From assembly GCF_900637905.1 (NCBI RefSeq), contig NZ_LR134472.1, positions 62,001 through 126,000 on the forward strand: a stretch of DNA of 64,000 nucleotides, given 5' to 3'. This document shows positions 1 through 48,176 of this stretch, piece after piece. A program made the translations under genes and the position numbers. Within the stretch, counting starts at the first letter, position 1; the number at the start of each line of letters is the position of its first letter. This stretch comes from Parvimonas micra. GTDB lineage: Bacteria > Bacillota > Clostridia > Tissierellales > Peptoniphilaceae. The notes below the pieces were generated by a model that ran no database searches, was not told where the DNA came from, and saw nothing but the letters and a program-made list of their open reading frames with translations.

Positions 1-782
1 ACGAAGAATATTACTCCTATCAGTATTATTATAAAAGCAGCTCCTATAAAATACACTTCACTTTTGTCTTCAAAAATCATTAAATTAAAAACTTTTATTC
101 CAAAAATATTACTTTTTTCAGTCAGAATAGGAGATATATTAAAATCTTTTTTCAAATATTCTTTAAGTCTAACAGTAGCAGTAATTCCTTTTAATCCATA
201 TTCCAAAAAAGTATTAACAAATATTGCAATAAACATTACAATGTATTGTTTTTTATTACATCTTATTAAAAACTTATAAAGAGCTAATATAAGCAAAACT
301 CCAGTTAGAATTCCAAGAATATAGCCACTAACTCTAAATAAAGTAACTGTGCTTACAGAATCTTCTCCAAATGCGATAAATTCCATTGCTTGAGTTAAAA
401 GCTTTGGTATTATTAGATAAATCATACAGGAAATAGATATAAACATAAATAATAAATTCAAAGAAGTAAGTATTTTAGAAATTTTCTTATGATTTTTTAC
501 AAAAATACTCAAAAATAAAAAAATACTCATTAAAATAAAAATAAATAAACATAATGCAAATACATATCTATTCAATTTTGTAACTGTGTGTATCATTTCT
601 TTTTTATTCTTCACTCTAAGTATATGTATGTATAAACCTAGAACTATTCCTATCACAAGAACTGAAAATGAAATTATTTTATTTGTCAAAGACATATTTT
701 CTTTTAAAAAAGACAACGCTAATGCAAAAAAGAAAGAAAATGTACATATAGCAAAAATTACATCAACATAAAATTTTCCCAA
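1..782 (-). CDS. Polytopic membrane protein, probable N-terminal part of the DUF2318-type partner of FTR1/P19 (partial, 3' end outside window)
   Basis: An uninterrupted minus-strand frame runs from a TTG at 780-782 off the left edge (260 codons visible). TTG is chosen because a GTGAGG ribosome-binding site at 791-796 sits 8 nt upstream and no ATG lies nearby in frame. The protein is almost entirely hydrophobic, with about seven membrane segments and short basic loops. A GEDSVST loop precedes the fifth or so helix. In known bacterial FTR1/P19 iron-uptake clusters a third protein has such a membrane domain followed by a cysteine-rich DUF2318 domain. Position directly after FTR1 and P19 genes and the topology fit that protein. 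The DUF2318 part itself is not in the window, so the family call is inference. Confidence 0.6.
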   Translation of the reverse strand, partial: MGKFYVDVIFAICTFSFFFALALSFLKENMSLTNKIISFSVLVIGIVLGLYIHILRVKNKKEMIHTVTKLNRYVFALCLFIFILMSIFLFLSIFVKNHKKISKILTSLNLLFMFISISCMIYLIIPKLLTQAMEFIAFGEDSVSTVTLFRVSGYILGILTGVLLILALYKFLIRCNKKQYIVMFIAIFVNTFLEYGLKGITATVRLKEYLKKDFNISPILTEKSNIFGIKVFNLMIFEDKSEVYFIGAAFIIILIGVIFF

Positions 783-810
783 AATAAAAACCTCACTTCT
801 AAAATATGGC

Positions 811-838
811 AAAACCTCTCTTAAGATTTTAAGAGAGG
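811..838 (-). terminator. Stem-loop between the P19-like gene and the downstream membrane gene
   Basis: On the minus strand, perfect 10-bp arms (CCTCTCTTAA and TTAAGAGAGG, 4-nt loop) are followed by a short TTTTG run. The U-tract is short, so this is more likely a partial terminator or attenuator that lowers expression of the next gene than a full stop. The ribosome-binding site of the downstream gene follows within 15 nt. Confidence 0.6.
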
Positions 839-887
839 ATTTGTCCGTTTGTCATATATTAATACTAATATTATTCATATATTAATA

Positions 888-1610
888 TTATTTATTTTGT
901 AATTGTTGTCCTGTATAGTTCCATTCAAATTCAACAGTTTGTTTTTCATAATATTTTGAAGCAGCAGCTTTTCCACCATCTTTAATTGCAGGAACACCTG
1001 TTTCTTCATCAGTGTGTAATAAGTAATCAGCTGAAGGTTGAATTTCGATAACTAATTTATACTTACCAACTTTAAGAACATTCTTTTTGATATTTGTTCC
1101 ATAATGAGCACCATCATCAGCATTCATTGGCATCATTGATCCTGAAGTAACTTCTTTTCCATCAGTTGATAATACTTTATAATTTACTGTTAAATATGCA
1201 GGCCAAATATCTTTTCCACTACCGAAACCATATTTTTTACCGGCTTCTTTAGTCAAATGAATGTCAGCTTCCAAGTGCATATCTGATTCTGCAGCACTAG
1301 GTTGTCTTCCTTCAGGAATCATATCAACTCCTTGAAAATAAACTGTAGCAACTTGGAAAGGACCTACAATTTTTTCTTCTCCGATTTTTATTTCTTCAAA
1401 TCCTGATTCACCTGGTTTTTCAGCATCTTCAGCTTTTTCATCTTCGGCTCCGGCTTCTTTTAATTTGTCATTTAACTCAGCAATCTTTTTATCTTTTTCT
1501 TCAATTGATTTTTGTAATTCATTTATTTTTGCTGTGTCATTTTTTTGACAGCCAACTAAACCTACTGACGCTAATAATGCTAATGTTACAACCATTTTTG
1601 ATTTTTTCAT
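888..1610 (-). CDS. P19/Tp34-family iron-transport lipoprotein
   Basis: 240-residue lipoprotein: basic start, hydrophobic stretch and LVGC lipobox (Cys about 21), so it should be anchored to the outer face of the membrane. Residues about 26-60 are a charged coiled coil acting as a spacer. The rest matches the P19/Tp34/FetP family, which binds copper and iron outside the cytoplasmic membrane and works with FTR1 permease. The metal-site signature is visible as SGSMMPMNADDGAHYG (Met, Asp and His ligands), plus the MHLEADIHL segment. A consensus AGGAGG lies upstream of the ATG. It sits 43 bp after the FTR1 gene on the same strand, as in described P19-FTR1 operons. Family call is firm; metal specificity is inferred. 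Confidence 0.9.
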   Translation of the reverse strand: MKKSKMVVTLALLASVGLVGCQKNDTAKINELQKSIEEKDKKIAELNDKLKEAGAEDEKAEDAEKPGESGFEEIKIGEEKIVGPFQVATVYFQGVDMIPEGRQPSAAESDMHLEADIHLTKEAGKKYGFGSGKDIWPAYLTVNYKVLSTDGKEVTSGSMMPMNADDGAHYGTNIKKNVLKVGKYKLVIEIQPSADYLLHTDEETGVPAIKDGGKAAASKYYEKQTVEFEWNYTGQQLQNK

Positions 1611-1653
1611 AAAATAAATCCTCCTAATTTTTTAACTTTAATAAAATAGAAAT

Positions 1654-2943
1654 TTAACTTTCCTTTTTTATTTTTCTTAATTTTAAATAGTGACCTAACA
1701 ATATCCAAACAGTAATTATTACCAACATAACTTGTGGAATTAAAGTTTCGGCTCTATCATAAATATTCAAAATTGGAATACTCCAACCTTGCATTGCAGG
1801 TATAACTGTTGAACCAGAAATAACTCCGGCTTCAGTTAACTCAATAACCCCTTTTCCCATAAACGAGATACACATTAGATATAATAATATACTTGTAAAC
1901 AAGAAAAATGGTTTAAGCGGTAATTTAACTGATGTGAATCTAAAAAGTAAAAATATTATAACCAAAACAACAGAGGCTGCAACAAGCCCTCCCATTGGAT
2001 ACAAAATCTTACCTCCACCCGAAAATGAGGCCTTATAAAATAAAATAAGCTCTGCTCCTTCTCTTAGTACAGCTAAAAAAGCAGCAAAAACCAAAGTCCA
2101 CTTACTTCTGTTATCTATTGATTTTTGAACTTTAGATTGAATATAATTTTCCCATGCTTCTTCTTCAGATTTAGATAAAATCCAGTTACTAACATAGAAT
2201 AAAACAATAACCGCTAAAAACATAGTCCAGCCTTCAAGTAGTTCCTGTCCAACTCCTCCTAATAAATAGTTTATTATTATGGCTAAACCAAAACTACATA
2301 CAACGGCAGCACCCATTCCCAAATAAACTGACTTACAAAGATGCTTATTCCCTGTTTTAACAAGATAAGCAATAATTGCAACACAAACAAGAATTGCTTC
2401 CAATCCCTCTCTAAGCATCAATCCGAATGATGTTAAAAAATCTTGGATATTTTTAGCTTTCTCATCTCCCTGTTTAATTTCAGTATCTCCAAATACAGCT
2501 TTACCTTCCGAATCCGGTGCATTTTTTGAAATTACTTTATCCAAAACAAGTGCATCTCTATAAACTTTCATATCAAGTTCATCTATTGATGCTTTAATTT
2601 TTTCAACAGAATCACTTGTATTTCCTAAAAAAGTATGCTTAATTTCTCTAAATGCCGCCTCAATTTCATTTACTCTACTATTAGAAATTGCAACCATAAC
2701 ATTTTTTTCAAAACCTTGAACTTCATAATAATCAAAATATGCAGAATCCATTGCCTTATAAGCACTTTTGAAATCTTTTTTATCAGCATACTCCTTCGCT
2801 TCTGTAAATTTTTTGTGCATATCTTTAGCAACTTCTTGCCAATTAGAATACTTTTTCTTTTCTACTTTGGCATCAACATTACCAACATTGCATACAAATA
2901 AAACACTACAAAATATTAGAAAAAAAGAAAATAATTTTTTTAT
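1654..2943 (-). CDS. FTR1-family iron permease with N-terminal extracytosolic domain (probable non-canonical ATA start)
   Basis: FTR1-type high-affinity iron permease. The two REXXE iron-permeation motifs are REGLEAILVC and REGAELILF (about residues 137 and 253 counted from the first ATG at 2818-2820), inside a domain of about seven helices; residues before it form a soluble domain as in other bacterial FTR1 proteins. The frame stays open 41 codons upstream of that ATG and encodes a textbook signal peptide (KKLFSFFLIFCSVLFVC then a DA site). The only initiator with a ribosome-binding site (GGAGGT, 8 nt away) is ATA at 2941-2943; an in-frame stop precedes it. I therefore extend to 2943. A conventional caller would start at 2820 and lose the signal peptide. 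First gene of the FTR1-P19-DUF2318 unit. Confidence 0.88.
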   Translation of the reverse strand: MKKLFSFFLIFCSVLFVCNVGNVDAKVEKKKYSNWQEVAKDMHKKFTEAKEYADKKDFKSAYKAMDSAYFDYYEVQGFEKNVMVAISNSRVNEIEAAFREIKHTFLGNTSDSVEKIKASIDELDMKVYRDALVLDKVISKNAPDSEGKAVFGDTEIKQGDEKAKNIQDFLTSFGLMLREGLEAILVCVAIIAYLVKTGNKHLCKSVYLGMGAAVVCSFGLAIIINYLLGGVGQELLEGWTMFLAVIVLFYVSNWILSKSEEEAWENYIQSKVQKSIDNRSKWTLVFAAFLAVLREGAELILFYKASFSGGGKILYPMGGLVAASVVLVIIFLLFRFTSVKLPLKPFFLFTSILLYLMCISFMGKGVIELTEAGVISGSTVIPAMQGWSIPILNIYDRAETLIPQVMLVIITVWILLGHYLKLRKIKKES

Positions 2944-2974
2944 AACTTAGCACCTCCCTAAAAACAATAATATA

Positions 2975-2995
2975 TGATAAAGATAATACATATCA
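2975..2995 (-). promoter_or_regulatory. Candidate metalloregulator operator in the FTR1 leader
   Basis: Imperfect dyad TGATAAAGATAATACATATCA lies between a -10-like TATAAT (minus strand, 3023-3028; no good -35) and the FTR1 ribosome-binding site. It contains GATAATACATAT, nearly identical to the site at the promoter of the FMN-binding gene (8175-8192). A Fur-family regulator is encoded at 47733-48176, but binding here is inference and the site is only a partial match to known Fur boxes. Confidence 0.35.
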
Positions 2996-3005
2996 CATAG
3001 TGAAC

Positions 3006-3266
3006 AAAAAAGTTAAGCACCAATTATACATAATCAATGCTTTAAATTAAATATTAAATTTATCAAGTATATATTAACATATTTGCAAAAAAATTTCAAT
3101 GAATTAATAAAACTTTTTATTATTAATTTTAAAAATTTTTTAACTGATTTTAACATACAAACATAGTATATAACTGAACATACAGAAATTGAGATTATAA
3201 TTTTAATAAGAAAATCTCCCTCATACAATGCTTTATATCGAGTATAGATATTGAGATGTTTTACAA
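3006..3266. other. Non-coding AT-rich spacer between the FTR1 unit and the upstream terminator
   Basis: About 260 bp with a possible minus-strand -10 hexamer at 3023-3028. A 64-codon frame on the minus strand (3034-3228) has no ribosome-binding site and a low-complexity Ile/Lys/Phe composition, so I do not call it. Nothing else recognisable. Confidence 0.5.
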
Positions 3267-3305
3267 CAAAAAAAAGACTATTGTAATTTAACTTTACAAT
3301 AGTCT
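3267..3305 (-). terminator. Intrinsic terminator after the heme membrane protein gene
   Basis: Minus-strand stem AGACTATTGTAA / TTACAATAGTCT followed directly by eight T residues. It starts 7 nt after the stop codon and separates the FMN-binding/heme unit from the FTR1 unit, so the two are probably separate transcripts. Confidence 0.92.
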
Positions 3306-3311
3306 AAATTT

Positions 3312-3992
3312 TTATCTTTGTCTTTTTTTGGTTATTAAACATTTTCTAATTCTAAGAACCGTATATAACATATAAATAACAGTATATAATACTATTGACA
3401 GCATATGTTTTTCAGGTTTATGCATAAACAAAACCATCAAGTGAACATATATCAAGTAAAAAAACGGATATGCTAATTTTTGTAAATTTTTCCAATTTTT
3501 AGCTTTCATTTTCTTTCTTACACACTTGAATGAAGTTATCATAAGCGGAATCATCATAGCTATAAGAATTAAACTTATTATTGTTGCCGTCTTAGTATAT
3601 ACATTCATTTTTGATGCATTTGTAAAAAATTCTACAAAGTATCTTATTCCAAAAGCCACATTATGACAAAGCGCAGCAAAACAACCGATAATCGACATTT
3701 CACCTCTTATACTCATAAGTTTTCGTGTATATTTGTTATGAGTTGTAATAACTCCTAGAAACATTACTATCATAAATGTTACTGTTGAAAATATACCTCT
3801 TTGAAAAATATCCATGACATATCTTGTAAACCAAATCGGCATATTTTTATAAAACTTTGTTTGATAATACAATACAACCGGAATTATTAATACATAAGTT
3901 GCCATATAAAACAACACCGGATATTTTTTTATAATATCTGCAAATAAAATGTAAAATAATGTTATTGCAATTAATCCTACTATTAAATTCAT
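3312..3992 (-). CDS. Ferric-reductase-like / MsrQ-like heme b membrane protein
   Basis: 226 residues, about six membrane helices. The segment RGEMSIIGCFAALCHN (His110) and NWKNLQKLAYPFFYLIYVHL (His184) match the layout of the ferric-reductase-like transmembrane domain found in MsrQ/YedZ proteins, where histidines hold heme and pass electrons across the membrane. In many relatives the second motif reads W-x-x-L-H-R-L; here that histidine is Gln171, so the heme set may be reduced or different. The ATG abuts the stop codon of the FMN-binding gene (TAGATG), showing tight translational coupling. I infer it delivers electrons from membrane donors to the flavins of its partner. Family call is moderately sure. 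Confidence 0.75.
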   Translation of the reverse strand: MNLIVGLIAITLFYILFADIIKKYPVLFYMATYVLIIPVVLYYQTKFYKNMPIWFTRYVMDIFQRGIFSTVTFMIVMFLGVITTHNKYTRKLMSIRGEMSIIGCFAALCHNVAFGIRYFVEFFTNASKMNVYTKTATIISLILIAMMIPLMITSFKCVRKKMKAKNWKNLQKLAYPFFYLIYVHLMVLFMHKPEKHMLSIVLYTVIYMLYTVLRIRKCLITKKRQR

Positions 3993-6900
3993 CTAATCTT
4001 CCTTTTCATTGGTTTTTAAATTTTGTTTTTCCGATGAGTCATCAGATAATTTTCCTCCACTATCCGAATCTTTTCTTTGCACTTTATCCTTAGTTGTATT
4101 TTCAGATTCAATAGTTTTATTTTTTTCAGAAGTATTATCTAGGTTATCAACATTTTTAATTTCTTTTTTTGAGGCCATAACTTTTCCTGTTTTATTAGAG
4201 TCATCTGCTTTTTTAGAATTTTTCTCATCTTTAATTTCTACAATATTTTTTTTAGACTCTTTCCATTCATCAATATTTGTTATTTTTATATTGAAAATTT
4301 CTACCAATTTCTTTCCGCTTTCATAATTATTTTTTTGAATTAGATTTTCGCAATATGCTCCAACTGATAATTTTTTATTTTTAATAAGTGTACTTATTAT
4401 ACTATTATTTTCAATTTCTTTTTTCGAATCCAAATCCACAACTTTAATTCCAAACAAATAAAAATCTGAATAAGGTATGTTTAAAACAGGTGTTCCGGTA
4501 GTATCCCAGTCGGATTCATTTTCCAGTTTGTTGGAAATAAATAATGTTACTTTTAAATCATTTAAATTAAACTTATCTTCTAATCTATACTGTGTCTTAT
4601 TTGATGTTAATCTAAATATTTTATACACAGGATATGGAACTATTTTAACAGAAATTTCCAATTCAAGTTTAGAACCGTCATTAAAGCTTAATCTTATCTT
4701 GCCTTTTTGATCTCCAAGCTTTGATCTATCCGGTTCTTTTAACACTTCGATACGTGAAATATCTGCGGAACGTGATTTCAATTTTAAATCTCTATTTATA
4801 GCAAAGTCTGAAAATGCACCCCATTTAACGGTTTCTGCAAAATTTTTCATATTTCCATATTTAGGGTCTTTTACCACTACATTTACTATTTCATTTTTTA
4901 TTTCAGGATACAAAATCTTAAATTCTTCTGCTTTGTTTGGAGCAGTATCTTTTACTACAACATTAATTGAAATATCCTTTGTACTCTTATCAGTAAATTC
5001 AAGACTTACTTTCATTAAAGTACCTGTCTCATTTACTTCACTTACATTTGCCTTTTCAATAATTTCAATTTTAGTACCTTCCGGTAAGTCATCAAGATGA
5101 TTTTTTAAATGGCTTAACTCTACTTCTTTACCTTTAATTGTAATCAAATCTTTTGGCTTGTAAACATATTTATCTGCCATAGAAATAACTTTTTCTTTTA
5201 CAATAACATCTATTTCTATCTCTTTTTCACTGCCATCATCAAATTTAAGTTTAATTAAAAGTTTTTGTAGAACAGTTTCATTTACTTTATTTACATCGAC
5301 TCCTCTTAAAACCGAAATATCAGTTTTGTCAGGTAAATTTTTAAGAACACTTCTTATTTTACTTTCTGTTATTTCTGTTCCTTTTGATATAATCAAAGTT
5401 TCCGGCGTTTCTTTGTATAAAAATGCTTTAGGAATCTTTCCTTCAACTTTTGTTTTGATACGGAAAGTATTATTGAATAATACACCTTTATACTTTTCAA
5501 TAACGTCTAATGTATATTCTCCACTAACAAAATCCGCGATTAAAGTCTTATTTTGTGCTTGTCTTAATGGAATTTCGATTTCTTCAGAAGACTTTTTGTC
5601 TTTAGCAATTATTTTAAACTCAATTTCTTTGTTATTAAGTTTTTCGGCAACCTCTTTTGAAACAGTTAGATTTTGAATAAAGTCTGTTGTATTATAGCCT
5701 TTAGTATCATACCATTCAGAACCATCTTTAGCTTTTATCTTAATTCCGGAAATTTCAAAATTCTTAGTCGTGCTTTTAGATATAAGAATAGTATTTAAAA
5801 ATTTAAAACTTTTACTTTCTTCATGAACTACTTTGAGCCTCAATCCGTCCGTAACATTATAGCCTAAGTTTTCTTTATTCAAAACTAATCCGTCTTTAAG
5901 CTCTTTATTATACTCATCAACCACTTTTAAACCATATTTGCCAAAGTCAGAATATGAAACTGTAATTTTCTGATTATTTTTTTTATATATAGTAACTTTT
6001 AAATCTTTTAAATCAAGCTTATCGCCTTCTTTATAAGAAGTTTTAAAGTTACTATCATCAACTCTCATATCATAAAAATCAAAGTTTTTAGCTTTTAATA
6101 ATGCATTTTTAATAGATGTAGCGGTTCCTGTTGCAGTGAAAGTAGCACCACTTACTGCATCATAATCACTACCGTCATAACCAAGTTCTTCTTTAACATA
6201 TACTTTTAACAATGAAAATATCCTGTCATGAATATTTCTTTCTCCTTTTAAATGTGATTCATCTATACTAAGTCCCCATTTACCGAAATTATGTTTTCCA
6301 ATTACTTTATCCAATGCAGCTCTATAAACTTCTACTGTTTGTTCTTTTCCACGTGCTTCTTCCATAACCTTGCTAGTTGCATCTCTTAACACTTCAAATT
6401 TATATATCAAGGATTCAAATTTTTGCATATTTTTAATTCTATCAATTATAGTATAAAATTTTTCTTGGAATATTCCGCCATCATCTACATTTCCGGGTGA
6501 TGTTACGCCCTTTAATCTGTTTAATTCTTCTTTAACAAGCTCTACATTTTCAATTTTATTGTTCTTGATAGTGACTTTTACAGGTATAGGTTTATTAGAA
6601 ACAAATCCATAACTGTCGCCATAATAAACTCCATCAGGATAATTTACATTTTTATCAAGATTTTTAACTTCTTCTGCTGATAAAAATTTATAACTTCCAT
6701 CCACTTTAGAATTTACCAATACAGGAATTTCTACAATCTTTTTACTGTTATCCTTGAATATAAGTTCAACTACAATTTTCGTTTTGCCTTCAGAACTTGT
6801 ATCTGCATTATTTTTTATATTAATTTGTACATCTTCGGGTAACTTTTCTAATGCATCTCGTATCTTTTGTAATCCGATAGTTTCCCCAACATTTGCAATT

Positions 6901-8117
6901 ATAGTCTTAGGAGAATAAATATATTTATCAGCATCACTTCCATTAGAATCAACAGCTTTTTCTAAAGCATTAACAACAGCATTTATAAAACCTTTTGATG
7001 ACGTTGTAGCTCCTGAAATTGTATCTATATTTGTAGATTGATTTGAAATAATCCTTTCTCCTAATATACCTGCTTTTTTATTATCAAAATATGATTCATC
7101 ATCATCATTTTTGGTTAATTCTATTTTTGCTATTTTACCATCTTTAACCGTTACTTTAACTTCAATTGAATTTGTATAATATCCATTTGACTTTCCAAAA
7201 TAAACACCATCCTTTAAACCTTTAAAATATTTCTTTATCTGTTCAATTTCACGTCTATTTTGTCTTGGAATATTTTGTTCCGTTTCATCAGGCGAATTGA
7301 TATCCAAACTGTTATTACCATTACTTGCCTTTCTTAAAGCATCTTTTACAGCATTTAATATTCCTCTACTTGAAACTGTTGCTCCTGACACTGTATCAAT
7401 ATTGGTGCTTCCGCTTATAACCTTATTAAGCACACTGGATGCCCAAGTAAAATATGGATAATCATCACTATGACTTATAACTCTCGCATCATAAATTACT
7501 CCATTTTTTATAGAAATAGAAACTTTGATTAGTCCGTTATATCCACGTCCAACGCCAATAAATGTACCATCTTTAAGATTATTTCTATTAAATCCGACTT
7601 TACCGGCAACAGCTGAAGACTGTTTTGCTAATAATTTTGCTTTTTCTTTATCTCTTAATTCTTCATTTTCCTTTTCAAGACCTTCAGCTACATCACTTGT
7701 TTTTGCACCGGCTTGAACAAGTGCTTTATAAACAGCTACTTTAATTGCATCAGAAGTAACCGTAGCGCCGGAAATTGAATCAACATTAAAAGTATTTTTT
7801 TCTACAATAGTTTGTAAAATTTTCTTTGCCATTTCATAGTATTCAGGCGTTTCATTATGTGAAAGCACTTCAACTGAAAAAATTTTGCCTTCTTTAATTA
7901 CAACTTTTACTGTTATAGGACCTTCATACCCTTCAGCACTGGCAGTATATTCTCCATCTTTCAATTCATTTGGAGCCTTTGCACTGTCAAGTTTTGCAGT
8001 TTCGTTTATCCTATGTTTTTGTCTATCAGAATAAACACTATTGTAAACAGTGTAACCTATTCCTGCCGTTGTAATACAAAAAACAAATAAACCGGCAATA
8101 ATACTATTTTTTTTCAT
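3993..8117 (-). CDS. Exported multidomain flavoprotein with four FMN-binding (flavinylation) domains and Rib-like modules
   Basis: 1374 residues starting at the second ATG (8115-8117); an ATG 15 nt upstream has the AGGAGG ribosome-binding site inside its own first codons and is rejected. An N-terminal hydrophobic segment acts as signal peptide or anchor. Four FMN_bind domains follow, each with the D-x-[IV]-S-G-A-T motif whose last Thr receives FMN from ApbE in this family: T119, T247, T371 and T659. Between and after them lie three Rib-like modules (about 398-468, 898-975, 985-1057) and two repeated Ig-like modules with the YSDF-x-x-[YF]-G-[IL]-KVVD core (about 690-760, 1170-1240). The last 80 residues are charged and disordered; no LPXTG is seen. 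Likely an extracellular electron carrier coupled to the heme protein that follows; the iron connection is inferred from context. Confidence 0.9.
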   Translation of the reverse strand: MKKNSIIAGLFVFCITTAGIGYTVYNSVYSDRQKHRINETAKLDSAKAPNELKDGEYTASAEGYEGPITVKVVIKEGKIFSVEVLSHNETPEYYEMAKKILQTIVEKNTFNVDSISGATVTSDAIKVAVYKALVQAGAKTSDVAEGLEKENEELRDKEKAKLLAKQSSAVAGKVGFNRNNLKDGTFIGVGRGYNGLIKVSISIKNGVIYDARVISHSDDYPYFTWASSVLNKVISGSTNIDTVSGATVSSRGILNAVKDALRKASNGNNSLDINSPDETEQNIPRQNRREIEQIKKYFKGLKDGVYFGKSNGYYTNSIEVKVTVKDGKIAKIELTKNDDDESYFDNKKAGILGERIISNQSTNIDTISGATTSSKGFINAVVNALEKAVDSNGSDADKYIYSPKTIIANVGETIGLQKIRDALEKLPEDVQINIKNNADTSSEGKTKIVVELIFKDNSKKIVEIPVLVNSKVDGSYKFLSAEEVKNLDKNVNYPDGVYYGDSYGFVSNKPIPVKVTIKNNKIENVELVKEELNRLKGVTSPGNVDDGGIFQEKFYTIIDRIKNMQKFESLIYKFEVLRDATSKVMEEARGKEQTVEVYRAALDKVIGKHNFGKWGLSIDESHLKGERNIHDRIFSLLKVYVKEELGYDGSDYDAVSGATFTATGTATSIKNALLKAKNFDFYDMRVDDSNFKTSYKEGDKLDLKDLKVTIYKKNNQKITVSYSDFGKYGLKVVDEYNKELKDGLVLNKENLGYNVTDGLRLKVVHEESKSFKFLNTILISKSTTKNFEISGIKIKAKDGSEWYDTKGYNTTDFIQNLTVSKEVAEKLNNKEIEFKIIAKDKKSSEEIEIPLRQAQNKTLIADFVSGEYTLDVIEKYKGVLFNNTFRIKTKVEGKIPKAFLYKETPETLIISKGTEITESKIRSVLKNLPDKTDISVLRGVDVNKVNETVLQKLLIKLKFDDGSEKEIEIDVIVKEKVISMADKYVYKPKDLITIKGKEVELSHLKNHLDDLPEGTKIEIIEKANVSEVNETGTLMKVSLEFTDKSTKDISINVVVKDTAPNKAEEFKILYPEIKNEIVNVVVKDPKYGNMKNFAETVKWGAFSDFAINRDLKLKSRSADISRIEVLKEPDRSKLGDQKGKIRLSFNDGSKLELEISVKIVPYPVYKIFRLTSNKTQYRLEDKFNLNDLKVTLFISNKLENESDWDTTGTPVLNIPYSDFYLFGIKVVDLDSKKEIENNSIISTLIKNKKLSVGAYCENLIQKNNYESGKKLVEIFNIKITNIDEWKESKKNIVEIKDEKNSKKADDSNKTGKVMASKKEIKNVDNLDNTSEKNKTIESENTTKDKVQRKDSDSGGKLSDDSSEKQNLKTNEKED

Positions 8118-8174
8118 AAATTCCTCCTGCATTTATTTTGTTAAATTTATAAATTTGTCACTTATTTATAAATA

Positions 8175-8192
8175 TAACAATACGTATTATCA
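8175..8192 (-). promoter_or_regulatory. Candidate metalloregulator operator next to the flavoprotein -10 box
   Basis: Near-palindrome TGATAATACGTATTGTTA (7 of 9 arm positions pair) abuts the -10 hexamer, where a bound protein would block RNA polymerase. It shares GATAATAC-R-TAT with the site upstream of FTR1. A Fur-type regulator is plausible, but this is inferred. Confidence 0.45.
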
Positions 8193-8221
8193 ATTCTACT
8201 AAAATTAATATTTTTTTTCAA
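8193..8221 (-). promoter_or_regulatory. Sigma-A-type promoter of the flavoprotein operon
   Basis: Minus strand TTGAAA, 17-nt spacer, TAGAAT. About 75 nt upstream of the flavoprotein start codon. It drives the FMN-binding gene and the coupled heme membrane gene. Confidence 0.6.
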
Positions 8222-8557
8222 CTAAAATTACTGATTTTAATATTAAAATTTCTTATCATTATTCTATAATTAAATATAATAAGTAACTAATTGCATATTT
8301 TACTATATTATTTTTAAAAAATTTTTTAAAAGATTTCTATATTTTTTTATATTTTTAAAAATATTTATCATATTCAAATATTATTAGATGAATTTATACC
8401 TAATTTAGTGTACTTTTTTATATATAAAAAATTTTTATTAAAAATATTAAGTTTTTATCATTTTACTAATAGCATTTTTATAAATTTATTAACTATAATT
8501 GTATTCCATTTATTATATCCTCAAATGATAATCTCATATAATTTATTTTTTTACAAT
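8222..8557. other. AT-rich non-coding spacer
   Basis: About 335 bp, extremely A+T-rich, with no frame longer than a few dozen codons, no RNA fold I recognise and no repeat. It separates the iron/flavin island from the rseC unit. Confidence 0.5.
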
Positions 8558-8597
8558 AAAAAAGTCAGGGAGTGATTTTTTAAAATTCACTCTCCAA
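8558..8597 (-). terminator. Intrinsic terminator after rseC
   Basis: Minus-strand GAGTGAATTTT / AAAATCACTC stem extended by G-C pairs at its base, then TTTTTT. Ends the aspS-tcdA-rseC transcript. Confidence 0.85.
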
Positions 8598-8611
8598 CTT
8601 TGTTACTGAAT

Positions 8612-9037
8612 CTATTTTTTTGAAATTATTTCTTCCATATACATTGCTTTTGCAGATAGATGTGCATATTTATTATCTACAAATTTTATTATTAAAAATG
8701 CCAAAAACATTGTAAATATACCAACTACAAATCCAATCAAATCAATTCCTTTTAAATTAGGAAAAGCAATATTGATTAACAATATTGAAAGGATAAACAT
8801 TAAAATAGGAAAACCATATAAGAAAATAGAATATTTTAATACAACACTACTATCAACTCCTATTTTTACATAATCCCCAACCGAAACATCTAATGTTTTT
8901 TTCATAACTATATGCATAGTCGGAGTTGGACATCCTCCACAAGTTTTACAAGTTCCCTTACAACCACTTATCCTTGAAATCAAAACTTTGCATTTATCTT
9001 CAGGTAAAATTTTTGTTATATATCCTACTTGTTCCAT
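8612..9037 (-). CDS. rseC: RseC/MucC-family (SoxR-reducing system) membrane protein
   Basis: 141 residues. The N-terminal part holds a cysteine cluster, GCKGTCKTCGGC, followed by a short basic region; the C-terminal half has two membrane helices (about 70-90 and 95-115). This is the RseC layout: a small membrane protein thought to take part in membrane redox control together with Rnf-type complexes. Its ATG overlaps the 3' end of tcdA by 13 bp, so it is translated with it. The partner system is not in the window. Family call is confident, role is not. Confidence 0.85.
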   Translation of the reverse strand: MEQVGYITKILPEDKCKVLISRISGCKGTCKTCGGCPTPTMHIVMKKTLDVSVGDYVKIGVDSSVVLKYSIFLYGFPILMFILSILLINIAFPNLKGIDLIGFVVGIFTMFLAFLIIKFVDNKYAHLSAKAMYMEEIISKK

Positions 9038-47732: not shown

Positions 47733-48176
47733 CTACTTTTTTTCAAGATTTGAACAATCTGAACACTTTCCATAGAATTTTAAATCATGGTTTATAATTT
47801 TAAATTTGTATTTTTCTTCTATTATTTGTTCCAAAGTTTCTAAATAATCTTCTTCTACTTCAATTATCTTACCACAATCCTTACATAAAAGATGATGATG
47901 TTGATGTTTGTCATCATCTCTTATTATTTCATATCTGTATCTTTTATCATCAAAATCCAATTTATGAACTATATTCATCTTATCAAAAATAACAAGAGTA
48001 CGGTAAACTGTAGCAATTCCCAAATCTTTGTCATATTTACTTGCTATTTCATGTAGTTCTTCAGGACTTAAATGATTACCTTTGTTTTCGTTTAAAACAT
48101 TAAAAACAATTTCTCTTTGTTTAGTAATCTTATAGTTGTTTTCAACTAACAATTTTTTCATATCTTTTACTTCCAT
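47733..48176 (-). CDS. Fur-family metalloregulator, probably Fur
   Basis: 147 residues. Winged-helix half with KITKQREIVFNVL and IATVYRTLVIFDKMNIV, hinge, then metal sites: His-rich KHQHHHLLC (H91, H93-H95), and the structural zinc cysteines C98/C101 and C138/C141. Fur, PerR and Zur share this layout; the lack of obvious PerR features and iron genes nearby in the window favour Fur, but this is not proven. AAAGGAG before the ATG. Candidate regulator of sites at 2975-2995 and 8175-8192. Confidence 0.9.
   Translation of the reverse strand: MEVKDMKKLLVENNYKITKQREIVFNVLNENKGNHLSPEELHEIASKYDKDLGIATVYRTLVIFDKMNIVHKLDFDDKRYRYEIIRDDDKHQHHHLLCKDCGKIIEVEEDYLETLEQIIEEKYKFKIINHDLKFYGKCSDCSNLEKK

What the first reader, a model, noticed from the sequence alone, without database searches (positions are those of the whole stretch)
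1..8221. Candidate flavin/heme-driven reductive iron uptake island
Two adjacent, co-oriented units carry on one side a giant exported protein with four flavinylation motifs plus a ferric-reductase-like heme membrane protein, and on the other FTR1, P19 and a DUF2318-like membrane partner. FTR1/P19 systems need an extracytosolic redox step; in known systems its electron source is often unclear. Here a covalent-FMN wire and heme protein sit next door and share a regulatory motif. The adjacency and motifs are seen; FTR1, P19 and FMN_bind roles are known; the joint pathway is inference.
Basis: partly seen in the sequence, partly recalled or inferred. Interest (0 to 1): 0.8.

Follow-up and report, generated by a model that had tools for sequence, protein, structure and literature searches.

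The report
Two neighbouring, probably separate redox modules
A Parvimonas bacterium carries a known iron-uptake gene set, which already has its own flavin protein, next to a separate gene pair for a flavin-and-heme electron wire; comparison with related genomes suggests that the two are neighbours in one small lineage rather than one pathway.

Summary
The genes are real. In a 1.68-Mb Parvimonas genome a 1374-aa protein with four FMN-attachment motifs and Rib domains is followed without a gap by a 226-aa membrane protein with a STEAP/NOX-like predicted fold and two invariant histidines. FTR1, P19 and an FtrD-like (DUF2318) protein come next. The joint pathway is weakly supported. (1) The iron operon has its own FMN_bind lipoprotein, just outside the window, in 35 of 35 P19 genomes of the family; this flavin link is published (Liu 2018, listing P. 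micra; Meheust 2021). (2) The flavin/heme pair ends at a strong terminator before the FTR1 leader. (3) It adjoins FTR1 in 4 of those 35, all Parvimonas; a fifth Parvimonas has both units at different loci, the sixth only the iron operon. Outside Parvimonas 15 of 124 genomes have the heme protein, 29 have P19, 1 has both. (4) A Fur-box-like site and a covarying hairpin precede FTR1 in 6 of 6 Parvimonas; the Parvimonas flavoprotein promoters show no Fur-like match above chance. Best reading: a known flavin-assisted Fet/Ftr iron importer beside an independent multi-flavin/cytochrome electron-transfer module. A joint role in the P. micra group is not excluded.

The parts
3993..8117 (-). 1374-aa multi-flavin protein (4 FMN_bind, 4 Rib stretches); N-terminal hydrophobic segment read by eye, export inferred
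7761..7763 (-). predicted flavinylated Thr119 (DSISGAT)
7377..7379 (-). predicted flavinylated Thr247 (DTVSGAT)
7005..7007 (-). predicted flavinylated Thr371 (DTISGAT)
6141..6143 (-). predicted flavinylated Thr659 (DAVSGAT)
8193..8221 (-). promoter-like site of the giant gene (TTGAAA-17-TAGAAT); promoter-like sites in this region are no more than in shuffles (54 against 53.7)
   Evidence: same hexamers in 4 of 4 Parvimonas aligned
3312..3992 (-). 226-aa membrane protein, STEAP/NOX-like predicted fold, likely one heme b (inferred)
3663..3665 (-). invariant His110, candidate heme ligand
3441..3443 (-). invariant His184, candidate heme ligand
3275..3305 (-). intrinsic terminator after the heme gene (12-pair stem, then 7 T), before the FTR1 leader
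   Evidence: fold z -5.0
3071..3099 (-). promoter-like site of the FTR1 operon (TTGAAA-17-TAATAT, TG before second hexamer)
3015..3042 (-). hairpin in the FTR1 leader, followed by AACTTTTTT; 11 pairs, 4 with changes on both sides
2976..2994 (-). Fur-box-like site, 15 of 18, in 6 of 6 Parvimonas
1654..2943 (-). FTR1 permease; likely starts at ATA (2941-2943), as no ATG/GTG/TTG precedes the signal-peptide-like stretch
888..1610 (-). P19 iron-binding protein, lipoprotein-like N-terminus (read by eye)
815..838 (-). hairpin between P19 and the FtrD-like gene
1..812 (-). FtrD-like (DUF2318) membrane protein, cut by the window edge (full: L002:9454-10812); the operon continues outside the window: two FtsX/MacB permeases, ABC ATPase, FMN_bind lipoprotein (L002:5849-6268), DUF4418 protein, FtsX permease, ABC ATPase

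Best explanation
Two neighbouring, separately transcribed modules (separate transcription inferred from the terminator). Module A is a Fet/Ftr-type iron importer: P19 captures iron outside the membrane; FTR1 carries it in; the FtrD-like CxxC protein, the FtsX/ABC pair and the operon's own FMN lipoprotein, flavinylated by ApbE, supply or relay the redox step (roles inferred from homology and published models, not shown here). Module B is an independent electron-transfer pair: the STEAP/MsrQ-like membrane protein would pass electrons through one heme to the four-FMN cell-wall protein. Its inner donor is unknown: no UbiA-family prenyltransferase was found, so the cell is not expected to make menaquinone, and the 226-aa protein has no room for an NAD(P)H domain. 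Its acceptor is unknown too. B came to lie beside A in the P. micra group.
For: A carries its own FMN_bind lipoprotein in 35 of 35 P19 genomes of the family. Terminator between B and A. B adjoins FTR1 in 4 of those 35; a multi-FMN protein adjoins the heme gene in 16 of 20 genomes that have it. Outside Parvimonas: heme protein 15, P19 29, both 1 of 124, expected 3.5. One clade of the five Parvimonas heme proteins is rejected, p-AU 0.0038, and the G103 and window copies are 50% identical while FTR1 and P19 of the same two genomes are 83% and 81%. Cis element of A: one match per Parvimonas genome, 6 of 6, before FTR1. No UbiA match in the genome, all 14 controls positive.
Against: The adjacency is kept in 4 Parvimonas genomes with the same orientation, and a STEAP-like fold beside an iron permease is suggestive (STEAPs as metalloreductases: recalled). 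The giant's promoter has a GATAATnnnTATTGTTA-type stretch at about -61 to -73 in those four genomes (12-13 of 18), and in G054 and G055, two genomes of one genus, the giant has a 14/18 Fur-like site that only 2 to 3.5% of shuffles reach. The leader model has a weak match (E 0.04, 0.096) about 225 nt upstream of the giant in G085, on the opposite strand, and weak matches in 14 other non-Parvimonas genomes that I did not place. So an iron response of B is not excluded. The Fur consensus is recalled. Outside the family a crude scan saw an FMN gene in only 3 of 16 P19 loci.
Confidence: 0.72

Rival explanations
1. One reading: electrons cross by the 226-aa heme protein, run along the four-FMN protein and reduce Fe(III) at the cell surface for P19/FTR1.
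For: Adjacency and orientation in 4 Parvimonas genomes; STEAP chains rank first in the fold comparison (Z 12.6 STEAP4, 12.3 STEAP1); ApbE present, with a lipoprotein-like N-terminus.
Against: Terminator between the units; 31 of 35 P19 genomes of the family do without it beside FTR1; 14 of 15 non-Parvimonas genomes with the heme protein lack P19; no Fur-like site above chance before the giant in 5 Parvimonas and no second copy of the FTR1 leader element in 6 Parvimonas; the operon has its own flavin protein.
Confidence: 0.18
2. A sharper form of module B: it is a respiratory or extracellular electron-disposal wire serving soluble or surface acceptors, unrelated to iron nutrition.
For: The heme protein occurs in 15 family genomes outside Parvimonas, 14 of them without P19, beside varied genes such as nrdEF; multi-flavinylated Rib proteins with membrane electron-transfer partners are a known class of unclear role (PMC8238504, passages).
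Against: No reductase domain or named acceptor was seen beside it; no donor identified; a 583-aa FMN_bind protein elsewhere could serve such a role without it.
Confidence: 0.5
3. The 226-aa protein is not a cytochrome, and the pair is a structural or adhesive surface unit.
For: The window copy has no Pfam match at E 0.1, and the family profile finds no related solved structure by sequence; Rib domains are surface-protein domains (recalled).
Against: Two invariant His, an R-x-E and a W-K-x-x-Q motif in 17 of 17; PF01794 hits in 3 of 17; STEAP/NOX chains at the top of both fold lists.
Confidence: 0.08

Closest known systems
FetMP-FetABCDEF / P19 iron uptake cluster (C. jejuni; Liu 2018 PMC6083913, Richardson-Sanchez 2023 PMC10783030)
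   Same: FTR1, P19, DUF2318/FtrD-like, two FtsX-type permeases and ABC ATPase in the same order; P. micra KCOM 1535 is one of the 33 species listed in Liu 2018, which states that Firmicutes carry a predicted FMN-binding protein as seventh gene.
   Different: Here an FMN lipoprotein instead of thioredoxins (as Liu 2018 says for Firmicutes), plus a DUF4418 protein and a second FtsX/ABC pair; hairpin leader in Parvimonas.
P19-associated flavinylation clusters (Meheust 2021, PMC8238504)
   Same: P19/FTR1 cluster with an FMN_bind gene, mostly in Gram-positives (260 clusters reported).
   Different: The passages read here do not mention an adjoining multi-flavin/heme pair; the supplementary tables were not readable.
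Multi-flavinylated proteins with wall-binding (Rib, SLH) domains (PMC8238504; PMC11334425; PMC10339131)
   Same: Several FMN_bind domains in an extracytosolic Gram-positive protein; Meheust 2021 reports Rib and other wall-binding domains in such clusters.
   Different: Here paired with a short STEAP-like protein; the papers call the function of the class unclear.
MsrQ-like / PF01794 ferric-reductase-like membrane cytochromes, STEAP
   Same: Predicted fold, two invariant histidines, multi-flavin partner.
   Different: No NAD(P)H or FAD domain; window copy below Pfam detection; the genome shows no UbiA-family enzyme, so no quinone is expected.

Membership tests
Fet/Ftr (P19/FTR1) iron uptake system | FTR1-family permease | tested here: met
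   PF03239 3.2e-26, 92.7 bits over the cut-off of 25.3
Fet/Ftr (P19/FTR1) iron uptake system | P19 extracytosolic iron-binding protein | tested here: met
   PF10634 8.5e-49; solved P19/FtrA chains match
Fet/Ftr (P19/FTR1) iron uptake system | DUF2318/FtrD-like membrane protein with CxxC pairs | tested here: met
   PF10080 1e-32; CQIC and CKRC
Fet/Ftr (P19/FTR1) iron uptake system | two permeases and an ABC ATPase in order | tested here: met
Fet/Ftr (P19/FTR1) iron uptake system | extracytosolic redox protein in the operon (FMN or thioredoxin) | tested here: met
   FMN_bind 3.9e-7; 35 of 35 family genomes by blastp to it
Fet/Ftr (P19/FTR1) iron uptake system | iron/Fur regulation | tested here: inconclusive
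   Fur-box-like site 15/18 in 6 of 6 Parvimonas, two Fur-family genes; no expression data; of the 29 other family operons, 27 have a best score of 10 to 13, one 14 and one 15
Multi-flavinylated protein | two or more FMN_bind domains with ApbE motif | tested here: met
   four motifs
Multi-flavinylated protein | ApbE in the genome | tested here: met
   one ApbE, lipoprotein-like N-terminus read by eye
Multi-flavinylated protein | covalent FMN actually bound | not testable with these tools
   needs protein
PF01794/MsrQ-like membrane cytochrome | match to PF01794 over cut-off | tested here: inconclusive
   window copy none at E 0.1; 3 of 17 relatives match, best 8.5e-8 (cut-off not shown there)
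PF01794/MsrQ-like membrane cytochrome | STEAP/NOX-like helical fold | tested here: met
   STEAP4 Z 12.6, rmsd 5.6, 187 aligned; SpNOX Z 11.0, rmsd 3.8, 162 aligned; the tool warns that helical bundles can reach about 13 without kinship, and Foldseek's best E is only 1.1e-3, but rows 1 to 9 are all STEAP/NOX
PF01794/MsrQ-like membrane cytochrome | paired heme-ligand histidines | tested here: inconclusive
   H110 and H184 invariant in 17 of 17; whether they face each other in the model was not examined
PF01794/MsrQ-like membrane cytochrome | heme binding and electron transfer | not testable with these tools
   needs protein

The most novel reading that the evidence does not exclude
In the P. micra group a wall-spanning four-flavin protein fed by a STEAP-like one-heme membrane protein was recruited beside the Fet/Ftr importer and reduces ferric iron at the cell surface, giving the importer a second, long-reach electron source besides its own flavin lipoprotein.
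Probability: 0.18. Interest if true: 0.65.

Novelty: new member of a known kind. Interest (0 to 1): 0.35.

Why it matters
It moves the electron-source question for FTR1/P19 here from a tempting neighbour to the operon's own flavin lipoprotein, and shows that the multi-flavin/STEAP-like pair is a module of its own, with unknown donor and acceptor, in several genera of one family of anaerobes. P. micra is genetically tractable (PMC9045310, abstract), so both ideas can be tested by gene removal.

Tried and rejected
Searched and not found: an Rfam family in window 1-9000 at E 1; plasmid records where one place covers 80% of the giant (0; 6 records match in part); solved structures related by sequence to the heme family (one chance hit at E 0.6); a heme-family match at E 1 in the stretches around the 16 other P19 genomes of a 398-genome phylum sample. 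Considered and rejected: one operon across both units (terminator); ApbE presence as a test (129 of 130 genomes); the FTR1 leader element as shared with the giant in Parvimonas (one match per genome). A first Fur-site control drew random sequence from the whole window (13/18 or more in 16%, 14 or more in 2.8%, 15 or more in 0.2%); since the promoters are richer in A+T, I replaced it by shuffles of each promoter. Weak leader-model hits in 6 other P19 loci (E 0.02-0.3) lie about 0.7-1.4 kb upstream of the operon's first gene and are nearly identical to each other; I took them for an unrelated hairpin and did not pursue them. In the family scan 15 non-Parvimonas genomes have weak matches (E 9e-4 to 0.1), not followed up. 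An empty-site check was only partly possible: in G100 the block before the giant (AspRS-like, ThiF-like and RseC genes; the first two named by eye) is followed by other genes over the 3.2 kb to the contig end; in G103 the contig ends at that place. Rows left out: the clade test used 13 of the 17 aligned heme proteins (four long branches left out); the alignment used 17 of 21 copies (three more of genus g3 and one split gene left out). One search's printout was cut in the middle, so parts of the L054 and L055 maps were not seen; the ends of those genes nearest the heme gene were. The second structure job was not used.

Papers: PMC8238504 outline, passages and section 10; PMC11334425 outline and one of three parts of section 4; PMC10339131 passages; PMC10783030 outline with abstract, introduction and discussion; PMC6083913 passages and section 10; PMC9045310 outline with abstract. 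That the giant/heme pair beside FTR1 is undescribed rests on searches only; supplementary tables could not be read, and Meheust 2021 supplementary file 1 may list this locus.
Full report
What is there. The window lies at 62,001-126,000 of a one-contig 1,677,398-base genome. The nearest named relatives of the 226-aa protein are in Parvimonas sp. oral taxon 393 (93%) and P. micra SYY (89%). On the minus strand a 1374-aa protein with four FMN_bind and four Rib stretches and four attachment motifs (mean 0.01 in shuffles) is followed without a gap by a 226-aa membrane protein. A strong intrinsic terminator follows (3275-3305, 12 pairs and 7 T; fold z -5.0). Then come the FTR1 leader, FTR1, P19 and the FtrD-like protein cut by the window edge.

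Beyond the window. The operon continues with two FtsX/MacB-type permeases, an ABC ATPase, a 139-aa FMN_bind lipoprotein (3.9e-7), a DUF4418 protein, a third FtsX permease and a second ATPase.

Comparison. In 130 family genomes the heme family occurs in 20 and P19 in 35, both in 6 against 5.4 expected. Outside Parvimonas it is 15, 29 and 1 of 124 (P of 1 or fewer, 0.09): no positive association. Gene maps show the FMN lipoprotein in 35 of 35 P19 genomes; in G052 its motif reads EAIAGAT. The giant/heme pair adjoins FTR1 in 4: G000, G101, G102 and G104; in G102 the giant's frame is broken near its start. G103 (Tissierellia bacterium KA00581, by equal contig length) has both units at different loci; G100 has P19 and no heme-family match. 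A multi-FMN protein adjoins the heme gene in 16 of 20 genomes; the other four (G050, G087 with two copies, G105, G108) have the heme gene without it. A sample of 398 genomes of the phylum gave 16 further P19 genomes; no heme-family gene was found in the stretches fetched, and a crude scan saw an FMN gene in 3 of 16.

History. The heme proteins of the P. micra group and of G103 do not form one clade (p-AU 0.0038, 13 rows; the tree tool warns of long branches). They are 50% identical, while FTR1 and P19 of the same two genomes are 83% and 81%. In G100 the block that precedes the giant in the window is followed by other genes for the 3.2 kb to the contig end. The adjacency therefore looks like a feature of one small lineage.

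The heme protein. The window copy matches no Pfam family at E 0.1; 3 of 17 relatives match PF01794, and the MamZ model matches at 4.1e-6, far below its cut-off. Two histidines are invariant in 17 of 17. The AF2 model (pLDDT 91.4, pTM 0.88) ranks STEAP chains first, then SpNOX and NOX5. Foldseek E-values are weak (best 1.1e-3) and helical bundles can reach Z near 13 without kinship, so 'STEAP-like' is a reading of fold and motifs together. No UbiA-family enzyme was found in the genome while all 14 controls were positive, so menaquinone made by the cell is an unlikely donor.

Regulation. All six Parvimonas share, before FTR1, a hairpin with AACTTTT after it (98.5% of cells paired, 4 pairs changed on both sides, slid controls at most 47%) and a Fur-box-like site of 15/18 that 0 to 1.5% of shuffles of the same leaders reach. 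The leader element has one match per Parvimonas genome at E 0.1, before FTR1. Before the giant gene, 11 promoters were examined: the best sites are 12 to 14 of 18; shuffles reach them in 10 to 95% for the 5 Parvimonas, 23 to 82% for G010, G012, G036 and G085, and 2 to 3.5% for G054 and G055, which share one site. A weak match to the leader model lies about 225 nt before the giant in G085, on the opposite strand. The genome has two Fur-family genes, one inside this window.

Literature. Liu 2018 (PMC6083913, section 10) lists P. micra KCOM 1535 among 33 species with this cluster, states that Firmicutes carry a predicted FMN-binding protein as seventh gene, and suggests it as a source of reducing power. 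Meheust 2021 (PMC8238504, passages and section 10) reports 260 P19 clusters with an FMN_bind gene, MsrQ-like cytochromes, and multi-flavinylated proteins, some in clusters with Rib-domain proteins, of generally unclear role. The central idea of the finding is thus known; the neighbouring pair is a member of a known, unexplained class.

Verdict. Observation partly confirmed; the joint pathway is a minority reading (0.18). Best explanation: two modules, 0.72.

Noticed in passing
window 3006-3046 (-) and 2976-2994: Leader hairpin with T-tract and compensatory changes before FTR1 in 6 of 6 Parvimonas, one match per genome at E 0.1, no Rfam match at E 1: a candidate attenuator of the iron operon. 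Weak matches in 15 other family genomes not placed, but for one near the giant of G085.
   Followed up: partly
window 2941-2957 (-): FTR1 has no ATG/GTG/TTG before its signal-peptide-like stretch; a conserved GTT-ATA-AAA, 9 nt after GGAGG in the window, suggests an AUA start in 5 of 6 Parvimonas; in G103 an in-frame TTG/GTG lies upstream. The ATG-based 388-aa ORF loses the N-terminus.
   Followed up: partly
window 815-838 (-): Stable hairpin between P19 and the FtrD-like gene in 6 of 6 Parvimonas; Richardson-Sanchez 2023 (discussion) names the matching fetP-fetA gap as one possible place of regulation.
   Followed up: partly
L013, L048, L049, L114, L115, L116, L014: In six genomes of genus g3 (Anaerococcus hydrogenalis among them) the giant/heme pair lies beside nrdEF-like genes (named by eye); in KA00581 they are about 5 kb away. 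Unexplained.
   Followed up: no
L062 9274-10000; L114; L011 5865-6359: Split heme gene in G107 and broken giant genes in G038 and G102, by sequencing error or decay.
   Followed up: no
L113: G128 carries FTR1 and P19 twice in tandem within one operon.
   Followed up: no
window 47772-48140 (-): Fur-family regulator inside the same window.
   Followed up: no
G000:C1:1437880 (L008) and C1:1091029 (L005): Two other FMN_bind proteins: a 583-aa lipoprotein-like protein and an RnfG-like protein beside RnfE/RnfA-like genes (names by eye).
   Followed up: partly
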